The position numbers were made by a program, and so were the translations under genes. The notes below the pieces were generated by a model that searched no databases, had not been told where the DNA came from, and worked only from the letters and a program-made list of their open reading frames with translations. This document shows positions 58,997-62,746 of a stretch of 64,000 bases of DNA, piece after piece. The DNA is from Terasakiella sp. SH-1 (GTDB taxonomy: Bacteria > Pseudomonadota > Alphaproteobacteria > Rhodospirillales > Terasakiellaceae). Location of the stretch: positions 2,591,501 to 2,655,500 of the forward strand of contig NZ_CP038255.1 of assembly GCF_004564135.1 (NCBI RefSeq). The letters run 5' to 3'. Within the stretch, counting starts at the first letter, position 1. Every line of letters starts with the position of its first letter.

Positions 58997-59272
58997 ATGA
59001 GTCTCAAAAAATCAGATGAATTTAAACGTGAAGCTATCCAACTTGCTTTGACAAGCGGTCTGTCTCGCAAACAAGTTGCTGCCGACCTTGGCATTGGCAT
59101 GTCCACATTGAATAAATGGGTCGCCCAGCATAAACATGACGACCTGATGTCTGGTCCGCACGACGACCTGCATAAAGAACTTGTCCGTCTTCGAAAAGAG
59201 AACCGTATTTTGCGAGAAGAGAGGGAAAATCTAAAAAAGGCGACGGAATTCTTTGCGAGGCAAAAACGATGA
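58997..59272 (+). CDS. IS3-family OrfA (helix-turn-helix subunit)
   Basis: 91 residues: an N-terminal helix-turn-helix (LSRKQVAADLGIGMSTLNKW) and a leucine-zipper-like C-terminus (LHKELVRLRKENRILREERENLKKATEFF). In IS3 elements it recognises the ends and is joined to OrfB by frameshifting. This frame is intact, but its partner is broken. The stop overlaps the orfB start (ATGA). Confidence 0.9.
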   Translation: MSLKKSDEFKREAIQLALTSGLSRKQVAADLGIGMSTLNKWVAQHKHDDLMSGPHDDLHKELVRLRKENRILREERENLKKATEFFARQKR

Positions 59273-60025
59273 GGTTTTGGTTTATTGAAAAAATAGAGGT
59301 GAGCACCCGCTTCATCTTCTATGCAACGCATTTAATGTCAGTATCAGTGGCTATTATGATTGGTGGAACCGCCCTATGTCACAGCAGCAACATGATGATT
59401 GGGTTTTGCTGACTAACATTCGTACGACCCATAAAGAAACTTATCAATCTTATGGACGTTAACGCATGACGGATGAACTTCGAGGTCTTGGCTTTACAGT
59501 CAGTGAAAAACGTGTCGCCCACTTGATGAAAGATAATGATATCAAAGTAATACGTACACATGCCTTCAAGAAGACGACAGACAATGACCATAATTTTAAT
59601 GTGGCACCGAACCTGTTGGACGGAGATTTTACAACGACAGGGCCAAATCAAAAATGGGCGGGTGTTTGCGAAGCTGGCGGAACGCCACATCAGTTATATC
59701 AAGACGGCAGAAGGTTGGTCTATTTAGCTATGGTGATTGATCTCTATTCTCGCCGTGTCGTTGGTTGGGCAACCAGCAAACGGCTGAAACGCAAATTGAT
59801 GATAGATGCACTGCAACGGCTATTGCTTTGCGTCAGCTACCAGAAGGCGTGATTTGCCATTCAGATCGCGGCAGTCAATATTCCAAGAACGGCTGAGGAA
59901 ACATAGCTTCAAGGCTTCTATATCAGGCAAAGGCAATTGTTATGACAATGCCGCTGTCGAAACCTTTTTCAAATCATTGAAAGCTGAATTAATCTGAAGA
60001 ATGAAATTGCAGACACGGGAACAAG

Positions 60026-60034
60026 CGGAAAAAG
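60026..60034 (+). repeat. Target duplication, left copy
   Basis: CGGAAAAAG in orfB, directly left of the IS256-family element; identical to 62507-62515. The symmetric inverted repeats favour an 8-base duplication, GGAAAAAG. Confidence 0.85.
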
Positions 60035-60286
60035 GGTGGTGTCCGATCTTCCGTGTAAATGACCGCTTAAGTTCACTTTTCCATCCTCAATATATTGAGG
60101 ATGGAAAACGGTCTTCGAACAGGACGGCAAACTGGTTGAGAGCCTGTTTCCATGTTCGAGTGGGTATGGTCCACTTTTTTGAGGCATTTTTCAAGGCCAG
60201 ATACAACAACTTGGTCGCCGCCTCGTCATTGGGAAAGTGGCCCCTGTTTTTTATGATTTTTCTCAAGGACATATTCAGCAACTGTA

Positions 60287-61228
60287 TTAATCAGTTTGCC
60301 ACTCTGATTTCTGAAGCACCATGGCATTTGCAATTGTTGCCAGCTTTCGAGCTGCTGCAATAACGCAAACTTTATGCGGTTTTCCAGCAGACTTAAGGCG
60401 TGCAAAGAAGGTTTTTATCTTCGGGTTATGCCATGAAGCGACTAATGCAGCTTGATAAAGAACGTCACGAACCTGTTTTCGCCCGCCAGACATAAAACGC
60501 TTTCCTTTATATTTCCCGCTATCTCGTGCGATAGGAGCGATACCACATAAACAGGCAATTTGTTTATCTGAGGCCGTTCCAAGTTCGGGAAGGAAGGCCA
60601 GAAAACTTGCACTGAGGACAGGGCCAACGCCGGGGATCGATTGCAAAATACGATCCTTTTCTTCAAGGTCATGATTCTCATGAATGAGCGTTGTGATCAT
60701 AGCGTTTAAATTGGAAATCTGGTTATTTAGAAACTGGATATGAGCCTTGTCCAATTCTTCAAGGTCTTCTTCCTGCTGTTGTCGAGATTGGCATTTTAAT
60801 GCAGCCCTTACTTTAATGAGTTGATGACGTTTTGCCATTAACCTATTGAGCCTCAATACATTATCAGATGGAAGGGAACGGCCTGAATTTGGGTTTTCCT
60901 GTATAAAACGGCAAATGATTTTGGCATCAATGCGATCTGTTTTTGCAATTTGAGCTTTGGAACGGGCAAAAGATCTTACTTGAGCGGGAGGGACTTGACG
61001 AACATGAAAACCCGCTTTGTGAAGAACTTTCCAGAAGGCCACTTCATAGCCTCCCGTGGCTTCCATGGCAATGAGCGTATTGGATTTGATTTCCTCAAGG
61101 CCATCAATAAGCTCTTGCAATCCGATTGCTGTGTTGGGGATGGATAAAATTTTGGAGGAATGACTAAAAGCAACGAGGCATTCATATTTCCCAACATCAA
61201 TGCCGACAAAATAATTGAAATGTGCCAT
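60287..61228 (-). CDS. IS110-family DEDD recombinase
   Basis: 313 residues and intact. The N-terminal RuvC-like domain has GIDVGKYECLVAF, AMEATGGYE and TDRIDAKIICRF, which supply the DEDD acidic residues. The C-terminal Tnp20 domain has SIPGVGPVLSASFLAFLPELG and RDSGKYKGKRFMSGGRKQVRDVLYQ with the catalytic serine. In IS110 elements this enzyme acts with a bridge RNA encoded in the same element. Its start lies right after the non-coding region described next. Confidence 0.95.
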   Translation of the reverse strand: MAHFNYFVGIDVGKYECLVAFSHSSKILSIPNTAIGLQELIDGLEEIKSNTLIAMEATGGYEVAFWKVLHKAGFHVRQVPPAQVRSFARSKAQIAKTDRIDAKIICRFIQENPNSGRSLPSDNVLRLNRLMAKRHQLIKVRAALKCQSRQQQEEDLEELDKAHIQFLNNQISNLNAMITTLIHENHDLEEKDRILQSIPGVGPVLSASFLAFLPELGTASDKQIACLCGIAPIARDSGKYKGKRFMSGGRKQVRDVLYQAALVASWHNPKIKTFFARLKSAGKPHKVCVIAAARKLATIANAMVLQKSEWQTD

Positions 61229-61413
61229 ACTTCTTTCTCCTTCTTGTGCTCCGGGATCAAGGTCCCAATCAACTGTTCGAGATATGAAGAAGGTGGAGTT
61301 ACCTTGCTGACTAACGAGGTCTAAGCCTCAAGGCTCTAACGGCAAACTCCACCCATAGTAGCCCTTGGCCAAGGGCTACTATGGGCATAAGTCTAACAAA
61401 TTTTAAATACACA
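61229..61413 (-). ncRNA. Candidate bridge RNA of the IS110 element
   Basis: This 5' non-coding end has, in transcript order: a long palindromic stem-loop (61385-61352), a target loop and a donor loop. In the target loop, AGAGCCT (61337-61331) equals the target left side with its CT core, a hairpin GAGG/CCTC follows, and AGTCAG (61312-61307) complements CTGAAT of the target right side at five of six bases. In the donor loop, ACAGTTG (61276-61270) equals the element's right end, GGGA/TCCC forms a hairpin, and CACAAG (61248-61243) complements CT-TGTG of its left end. The layout is that described for IS621 bridge RNAs. Confidence 0.65.
61352..61385. repeat. 34-base perfect palindrome in the IS110 non-coding end
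   Basis: Each half reads CCCATAGTAGCCCTTGG and its exact complement. It forms the 5'-most stem-loop of the candidate bridge RNA. Confidence 0.85.
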
Positions 61414-62506
61414 AGGCTCTCAATCGCGTTGGTCGTATAGATGATTTTGCGGATTTCTTCAGGATAGGCAAAAAACGGAATGACATGCTCCCAGTTATTT
61501 CGCCATGATTTGGCGATAGAGGGGAACTTTCCGCCCCATTTCTCCTCAAATTCATCCAGCCTGAGAGCGGCGTCTTCAGCCGTATTGGCCCGATAGACCC
61601 CTTTCAAATCGGTGGCGACCGCTTTTTTCTCTTTCCAGCCGACAAAGTTCAGGGAATTGCGGATCATATGGACGACGCAAGTCTGGACCTGTGTGTCAGG
61701 GAAGGCGGCGTTGATGGCCTCTGGAAAGCCTTTTAGACCATCCACGACAGCAATAAAGACGTCGTTCACACCTAGGTTCTTGATGTCATTCATCACCCTA
61801 AGCCAGAACTTAGCCCCTTCGGTTTGTTCAATCCACAGGCCGAGAACCTCTTTCTGGCCTTCCATCGTAAAGCCCAGAGCCAAATAAACCGCCTTGTTGC
61901 GAACCGTACCTTCATCACGGATTTTGACCCGTAGGGCATCAAAGATGATAACAGGATAAACCGCATCAAGAGGGCGGCTTTGCCAGTCTCGAACCTCTTC
62001 CATGACCGCATCCGTCACTGTGGAAATCAAATCCTTGGAGACCTCTACGCCATAGATTTCCTCAAGGTGCCCACGGATTTCGTTAACGCTCATGCCACGG
62101 GCATACATAGAAATAATCTTGTCATCGAAGCCGTCAAAACGACGTTGACCTTTCTTGATGATTTGTGGCTCGAACGTGGCATCGCGGTCTCTGGGCGTGG
62201 TAATTTCCATCTCGCCGTCTTCGCCGACAATGGTCTTGCGACCATGACCGTTGCGGGAATTGCCGCCATTACGCCCTGTTGGATCGCCTTTGGCATAGCC
62301 AAGGTGATCGTCCAACTCCGCATTCATCGCCCTCTCAATCAGGGCTTTCTTCAATTGTTTAAGAAGTCCATCTTCGCCCATCAAGTCTTGTGGGTTCTCA
62401 ACGGATGCTAAAAGCTCATCGAGCAGTTCTTTCTTGATAACCATCTTCTGGCACCTCCAAACAGGAGTTTACACGATGGCCATTTACACAGTTAATCGGA
62501 TAGGCT

Positions 62507-62515
62507 CGGAAAAAG
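62507..62515 (+). repeat. Target duplication, right copy
   Basis: CGGAAAAAG, identical to 60026-60034, on the right of the IS256-family element. Confidence 0.85.
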
Positions 62516-62746
62516 CCTTGTTCGGATATATTAATCGATTTTACAATCCAAAACGTCGTCATTCATACTTGGGAAATATCAACCCCATGCAATTTGAATT
62601 GAAGGCGGCCTAAGCAGAGAAGGTACTCTCCAGTTTTAGGGAACGGGTCCAATATCATACTGATCCGGGTTTCTCGAAACAGGTCACTACCTTTCCGTAC
62701 AAGCCAAATTCCTTTTTGGCATGTTCTCGTGTTTGAAATTCACAAA

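What the first reader, a model, noticed from the sequence alone, without database searches (positions are those of the whole stretch)
61229..61415. IS110 bridge RNA whose guides match its actual insertion site
The non-coding end of the IS110 element carries, in IS621-like order, a palindromic stem-loop, a target loop and a donor loop. The target loop holds AGAGCCT and AGTCAG, matching the two sides of the IS256 site AGAGC-CT-GAAT (the second with one mismatch). The donor loop holds ACAGTTG and CACAAG, matching the element's own right and left ends around the CT core. Because the split host gene fixes the target to the base, this is an unusually direct guide-target record.
Basis: partly seen in the sequence, partly recalled or inferred. 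Interest (0 to 1): 0.85.

Follow-up and report, generated by a model that had tools for sequence, protein, structure and literature searches.

The report
IS110 bridge RNA with matching insertion sites
A small jumping DNA element carries an RNA whose two loops spell out both the element's own ends and the sites where its copies sit; this is a known kind of RNA-guided transposon, here unusually easy to read, with relatives whose guides aim at the ends of other transposons.

Summary
Confirmed. Window 61413-60279 (minus strand) is a complete IS110 element. Its left non-coding end (about 61386-61229) encodes a three-hairpin RNA of the IS621 bridge-RNA type. The donor loop matches the element's two ends (7/7, 6/6). 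The target loop matches the insertion site in an IS256 gene (7/7 left; right side one mismatch) and two further sites of almost identical copies in the same genome. The structure covaries: 21 of 50 pairs have changes on both sides among 4 sequences. Across 19 families, true guide-target pairings beat all 100,000 permutations on both sides. A promoter-like sequence forms only when the ends join. It is a new member of a known kind.

The less expected part came from relatives. Of 15 examined, 14 sit at TCCTG[A/C][C/G]C|CT|AR. In the 4 where an annotated IS5-family neighbour was read in full, this is the IS5 tip plus its TA target duplication; one such IS5 carries an IS110 at both tips. Two of the window element's three independent sites resemble such tips, cut 6 bp further inside. 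Transcription and activity were not testable.

The parts
60279..61413 (-). IS110 element without core (1135 bp; left end at 61413, right end at 60279)
   Evidence: full copies at other genome places agree up to these limits and sites B and C diverge beyond
61414..61415 (-). core dinucleotide CT at left junction; left target AGAGC at 61420-61416
   Evidence: sequence
60277..60278 (-). core dinucleotide CT at right junction; right target GAATATG from 60276 downwards
   Evidence: sequence; with one CT counted, the IS256 reading frame runs ...TTNAIES-LNMSLRKIIKNRG (ORFs), as in intact homologues NAIESLNRVIRK and NAVEALNRSLRK
60287..61228 (-). IS110 recombinase, 313 aa, DEDD + C-terminal Transposase_20 domains
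   Evidence: Pfam PF01548 7.8e-26 and PF02371 1.6e-20; IS621 transposase 8wt6 E 2e-28 with the GID, EATG, KTDxxDA and SG stretches aligned
61390..61395 (-). -10-like TAGACT, 17 nt from the TTGCTT that only the joined ends (60281-60279 TTG + CT + 61413 T) create
   Evidence: integrated copy reads AGCCTT at that place (0/6 to consensus)
61229..61386 (-). predicted bridge RNA body (ends inferred)
   Evidence: fold, covariation, guide matches
61352..61386 (-). 5' stem-loop
   Evidence: helix 1: 9 of 15 pairs with changes on both sides among 4 sequences
61292..61353 (-). target-binding hairpin
   Evidence: helix 2: 8 of 11 pairs with changes on both sides, 100% of cells paired
61331..61339 (-). left target guide TTAGAGCCT
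   Evidence: 7/7, 7/7, 6/7 at sites A, B, C with core
61307..61314 (-). right target guide TTAGTCAG (reads CTGACTAA)
   Evidence: CTGA, one mismatch, then TA at site A; CTGAC only at B and C
61230..61292 (-). donor-binding hairpin
   Evidence: helices 5-8; apical helix covaries in 16 sequences
61270..61276 (-). left donor guide ACAGTTG, identical to the right end of the element before the core
   Evidence: in copy C (L004) that end reads ACTTTTG
61243..61248 (-). right donor guide CACAAG, complementary to core + left end CTTGTG
60279..60286 (-). right non-coding end, only 8 nt (TACAGTTG) after the stop codon
61416..62444 (-). 5' part of the IS256-family transposase gene that the element splits
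   Evidence: Pfam PF00872 2.7e-119

Best explanation
A complete IS110-group element whose left end encodes a bridge RNA. Excision joins right end, core CT and left end into a circle, which creates a promoter reading into the left end. The RNA binds the DEDD recombinase. Its donor loop pairs with the joined ends and its target loop with AGAGC-CT-GAC-like DNA, and strand exchange at the CT core inserts the element. Shown here: ends, cores, structure conservation, guide-donor and guide-target matches at three independent sites, promoter-like sequence only in the joined form, recombinase domains. Inferred from IS621: circle, transcription, RNA binding, recombination.
For: IS110 recombinase domains and IS621 homology. 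Stable three-hairpin fold, z -3.37. 21 of 50 pairs with change on both sides among 4 sequences, 95.9% of cells paired against at most 53.7% when slid; 13 of 19 consensus pairs in a 16-sequence alignment. Sites A, B, C match the guides at 9, 8 and 7 of 10 non-core positions; 0, 2 and 35 of 6337 window CT sites do as well. Across 19 families (31 loci read; one representative each in the permutation) the true left and right sums, 120 and 123, were reached by 0 of 100,000 permutations each. Joined-end TTGCTT-17-TAGACT in the own element; the mean -10 match over 19 families peaks at spacer 17 (2.79 against 1.26-1.95 at the six other spacers).
Against: No transcript or activity data. The right guide mismatches site A at the third base after the core; sites B and C match it only through CTGAC. 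Copy C has two substitutions in the donor end. 42 uninterrupted AGAGCCTGA sites remain in the genome, so a guide match alone does not predict insertion. The -35 match is only 3 of 6, and several families lack a -10 at spacer 17. In one search the best left and right matches lay in the wrong order in 7 of 31 loci; for L027 and L034 the automatic right match fell on the left guide and L012 scored only 4 of 7, so those scores are loose. Related families are not fully independent in the permutation.
Confidence: 0.93

Rival explanations
1. The stretch is only the structured 5' leader of the transposase mRNA (a translation-control hairpin), and the guide matches are coincidence.
For: It lies directly upstream of the start codon; hairpins in 5' leaders of transposases are common (general knowledge).
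Against: Guides match targets at three own sites and in 19 families against 0 of 100,000 permutations; loop bases change with the target while stems covary.
Confidence: 0.03
2. Sites are chosen by the protein or by the tips of resident IS5-like elements and MITEs, the RNA loop merely having drifted alongside.
For: Sites B and C both continue as GACCCTA(A/G)G beyond the guide match, like transposon tips; in sister loci the right guide agrees exactly with the fourth base of CTAR in only 5 of 11.
Against: Site A, in an IS256 gene, has no such tip; sister left guides follow a C/G difference of the tip in 12 of 14 loci.
Confidence: 0.04

Closest known systems
IS621 bridge RNA and recombinase (IS110 group; PMC11208160, sections 5, 6, 7 and 12 read, passages elsewhere; solved structure 8wt6 found by sequence)
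   Same: recombinase domains; RNA in a long left end; 5' stem-loop, then target loop, then donor loop; guide logic; CT core; promoter across joined ends
   Different: target AGAGC-CT-GAC instead of the IS621 target (ATCGGGCCTAC); right end only 8 nt; recombinase distantly related (E 2e-28)
[quoted passage not shown] seen only as a title in the reference lists of PMC11208160 and PMC11187229)
   Same: an IS110/IS1111 element docking on another transposon's inverted repeat, as the sister clade here does
   Different: other group (bridge RNA in the right end for IS1111 members, PMC11208160 section 12); Tn21-type repeat, not an IS5-family tip with its TA duplication
ISPye46 arrays IS110-IS5/IS256-IS110 in Paracoccus yeei (PMC11578231, passages read)
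   Same: IS110 copies flanking IS5 or IS256 elements
   Different: ISPye46 is 1361 bp with TG repeats; the authors left open whether this is preferential insertion; the passages mention no guide RNA; not compared by sequence here

Membership tests
IS110 family, IS110 group (IS621-like) | DEDD RuvC-like N-terminal domain and Transposase_20 C-terminal domain | tested here: met
   motifs aligned to 8wt6
IS110 family, IS110 group (IS621-like) | long left end, short right end, bridge RNA in the left end | tested here: met
   185 nt before the start codon, 8 nt after the stop
IS110 family, IS110 group (IS621-like) | 5' stem-loop, target internal loop, donor internal loop, with covariation | tested here: met
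IS110 family, IS110 group (IS621-like) | guides match target and donor on both sides of a dinucleotide core | tested here: met
   right target guide with one mismatch at site A
IS110 family, IS110 group (IS621-like) | promoter formed across joined ends | tested here: inconclusive
   sequence match only: TTGCTT (3 of 6) - 17 nt - TAGACT (4 of 6); activity not testable
IS110 family, IS110 group (IS621-like) | RNA is made, binds recombinase, directs recombination | not testable with these tools
   needs RNA-seq and assays
IS1111 group | bridge RNA in right end; subterminal inverted repeats of 7-17 bp | tested here: not met
   right end 8 nt; only AATAC/GTATT, 5 bp by eye, flanks the donor
Rfam sX15 (RF02234) | gathering score 55 bits | tested here: not met
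   24.2 bits, plus strand, E 0.8

The most novel reading that the evidence does not exclude
A clade of alphaproteobacterial IS110 elements has bridge RNAs specialised to read the boundary between a resident IS5-family (IS427-like) transposon, or its MITEs, and the host. The left guide reads the transposon's inverted-repeat tip. The right guide reads the last tip base plus the TA duplication. The recombination core CT straddles the boundary. The IS110 thus rides on an abundant mobile repeat of its hosts without breaking a gene. The window element has moved its guides 6 bp inward within such tips and thereby became able to hit other DNA, including IS256.
Probability: 0.5. Interest if true: 0.6.

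Novelty: new member of a known kind. Interest (0 to 1): 0.45.

Why it matters
It gives a naturally replicated guide-target record: one RNA with three different sites, and a clade in which a left-guide base follows a base of a transposon tip. It offers a guide-based answer to a question left open in print for another element (PMC11578231, passages): whether IS110-IS5-IS110 arrays arise by preferential insertion. It also supplies a compact recombinase-RNA pair (313 aa, 8-nt right end) distant from IS621.

Tried and rejected
Protein pattern scans of genome contigs and viral contigs gave one 27% relative and none; DNA search of plasmids gave none. A class-level search of 385 genomes at E 1e-60 returned only the own genome. 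Empty site for site B: of 5 other genomes of the genus, 4 match only from the uvrA side (query positions 313-316 onward) and 1 not at all, so no empty site was found. Empty IS256 copies in the own genome: besides the two interrupted copies only four fragments. An extra pairing of the target-loop apex (CUUAG) with CTAAG of site B was considered by eye and dropped: I saw no parallel in L012, L027, L034. Rfam: one sub-threshold hit, rejected.

Rows dropped: of 42 candidate loci, 31 entered; L015, L016, L030, L031, L033, L035, L046, L047 lacked a recognisable end or donor guide, L052, L054, L058 repeated a sibling. The core of L012, L027, L034 was moved by one base after inspection. Of 37 plasmid records matched I fetched 12, chosen from the closest; L152 had no recognisable donor guide and was left out. 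L151 and L152 are not in the tree.

An error of mine: the right flank was started one base late, so the printed joined IS256 translation is wrong; the frame statement rests on the ORFs and the homologues.

Full report
WHAT IS THERE. On the minus strand, window 61413-60279 is a 1135-bp IS110 element with one CT core at each junction (61415-61414 and 60278-60277). The recombinase ORF (61228-60287, 313 aa) has both IS110 Pfam domains and aligns to the IS621 transposase 8wt6 at E 2e-28, with the stretches GID, EATG, KTDxxDA and SG in register. Only 8 nt follow the stop codon before the core, while 185 nt precede the start. The element splits an IS256-family transposase gene. With one CT counted, the frame runs ...TTNAIES-LNMSLRKIIKNRG (ORFs), the order found in intact homologues (NAIESLNRVIRK, NAVEALNRSLRK). 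The IS256 lies in turn inside ORFs that look IS3-like (the family name is from recall), with CTTTTTCCG at both outer borders.

THE RNA. The minus-strand leader folds into three hairpins, z -3.37. In an alignment with L012, L027 and L034, 21 of 50 consensus pairs show a change on both sides and 95.9% of cells pair; sliding the partner by 1 to 3 columns gives at most 5 such pairs and 53.7%. In a 16-sequence alignment 13 of 19 consensus pairs have changes on both sides. No Rfam family reaches its threshold. In the joined form TTG + CT + T gives TTGCTT, 17 nt before TAGACT; the integrated copy reads AGCCTT instead. Over 19 families the mean match to TATAAT is highest at spacer 17: 2.79 of 6, against 1.26-1.95 at spacers 14-16 and 18-20; several families have no good -10 there. 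This is the promoter arrangement described for IS621 (PMC11208160, section 5 read).

GUIDES AGAINST SITES IN ONE GENOME. The genome holds four full copies, the window's included, and one partial copy. The other three full copies differ from the window copy by 1, 2 and 3 bases, none in the RNA. Two full copies and the partial one lie in the same IS256 site. L066 shares 2491 bp of IS256 plus IS110 with the window at 99.7%, and the three IS256 copies have different outer flanks where read. Either IS256 carried the IS110 along or the IS110 hit the same site more than once; I count it as one event. Independent sites are therefore three. A: TTGAGAGC|CT|GAATATG. B: TTAAGAGC|CT|GACCCTAAGG. C: TTTAGAAC|CT|GACCCTAGG. 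Guide-predicted: GTTAGAGC|CT|GACTAACG. Over the five bases either side of the core they score 9, 8 and 7 of 10; among 6337 CT sites in the window 0, 2 and 35 score as high. The left difference at C is a G-to-A change that an rG:dT pair could tolerate; such a pair is reported for another position of the IS621 target (PMC11208160, passage). Copy C has two substitutions in the donor end (ACAGTTG to ACTTTTG), so it should be a poorer donor (inference). 42 uninterrupted AGAGCCTGA sites remain in the genome, so the guide match is not sufficient.

GUIDES AGAINST SITES ACROSS FAMILIES. In 31 loci of 19 families I read ends, flanks and loop region, and asked how well each flank 7-mer is found in its own RNA against the RNAs of other families. 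Mean left match is 6.32 of 7 for the own pairing against 5.06 for others; right 6.47 against 5.00. None of 100,000 permutations reached either sum. Weak points: in 7 of 31 loci the best left and right matches lie in the wrong order; for L027 and L034 the automatic right match fell on the left guide, and L012 scored 4 of 7 on the right; some families are related.

WHAT ITS RELATIVES AIM AT. In a tree the window element, L027 and twelve others form a clade with support 0.999; the position of the window element next to L027 is unsupported (0.034). Fifteen relatives were examined: L012, L027, L034 and 12 of the 37 plasmid records found. In 14 (all but L152, whose RNA I could not read) the flank before the core is TCCTG[A/C][C/G]C and the two bases after it are AG or, in L141, AA. 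In 9 of 11 plasmid loci the left flank continues as CTGG[T/C]TATGAR or GAAATCAATG. In four of the 12 fetched regions the neighbour on that side is annotated as an IS5-family transposase. Read in full, all four neighbours have matching inverted tips GG[G/C]TCAGGA...TCCTGA[C/G]CC and are 807-843 bp long. In L153, L154 and L156, where both outer sides can be read, TA flanks them; in L155 the left side is occupied by another IS110. Length and 2-bp repeat are close to the IS427 group (832-865 bp, mostly 2-bp repeats, table passages of PMC3281130); the L156 neighbour, 807 bp, is shorter. Thus the core CT consists of the last tip base and the T of the TA duplication. The left guide reads the tip. The right guide has cognate CTAG or CTAA in 11 of 11 plasmid loci, which covers tip end, TA and a purine; the purine itself agrees with the site in only 5 of 11 (five of the other six would be G-U pairs). 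At the tip position that is C or G, left guide and tip agree in 12 of 14 loci; L012 and L147 disagree. In L155 one IS5 carries an IS110 at both tips in opposite orientation.

BACK TO THE WINDOW ELEMENT. In its genome the tip sequence GGTCCTGACCCTA occurs 28 times (backward control 0). It occurs 97 times in G463, the host of L027, 20 and 7 times in two of the five other genomes of the genus, and 0 times in the other three; 0 too in G984. G004 (one of those three) and G984 are the hosts of L012 and L034, so abundance of the exact 13-mer in the host is not general. Some copies are paired ends of 182-269 bp MITE-like units (six listed), many are single tips without a partner nearby. Sites B and C continue as GACCC-TA-RG, like such tips, but the element sits 6 bp inside, at the first CT. 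No uninterrupted copy of AGARCCTGACCCTARG without mismatch exists in the genome. So two of three sites look like tips, and the third, in IS256, does not. B and C lie between genes, and I found no IS5 body beside them. I infer that the clade's ancestral target was the tip and that the window element's guides shifted; three sites cannot prove it.

WHAT IS KNOWN. Bridge RNAs of IS110 and the parallel seekRNA work are published (PMC11208160: sections 5, 6, 7, 12 and passages; PMC11187229: passages; PMC11208158: listing only). Docking of IS110/IS1111 elements on Tn21 inverted repeats (a title), attC and REP (passages) is known. For Paracoccus yeei, IS110-IS5/IS256-IS110 arrays were described and left open as possible preferential insertion (PMC11578231, passages). 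My searches for IS110 with MITE, IS5 family or IS427 listed no paper whose title or abstract start reads a bridge-RNA guide against an IS5-family tip; of the listed papers I looked inside two (PMC3281130, PMC11578231). The library lacks most subscription journals, so this is not proof of absence.

VERDICT. The element is a new member of a known kind; interest comes from the replicated guide-target record and from the transposon-tip habit of its relatives.

Noticed in passing
L141-L151, L012, L027, L034; arrays L153-L156: Sister IS110s sit at TCCTG[A/C][C/G]C|CT|AR; in L153-L156 this is the tip of an IS5-family element next to its TA; L155 is an IS110-IS5-IS110 array.
   Followed up: yes
L080, L083-L087, L091-L093, L096, L097, L099, L100, L104-L106: Exact GGTCCTGACCCTA tips that stand alone, with no partner tip within 420 bp upstream; the few read by eye lie just after stop codons; origin unexplained.
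   Followed up: partly
L027, recombinase stop codon: The stop codon TAG is made of the core T plus AG of the target, so guide-specified target DNA ends the gene.
   Followed up: partly
L004 (copy C), right end: Donor end ACAGTTG reads ACTTTTG while the RNA is unchanged; possibly a disabled donor.
   Followed up: no
L040, L041, L042, L045, L048, L049, L055, L060: More distant relatives share the right target TTGTTA with varied left flanks, resembling integron attC sites (recalled, not tested).
   Followed up: no
window 58997-62620: Three-level nest: IS110 in IS256 in an IS3-like element, with CGGAAAAAG (plus strand) at both outer IS256 borders as a likely target duplication.
   Followed up: partly
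window 61292-61353 (+): Antisense of the target hairpin gives a sub-threshold Rfam sX15 hit (24.2 of 55 bits, E 0.8); probably chance.
   Followed up: no
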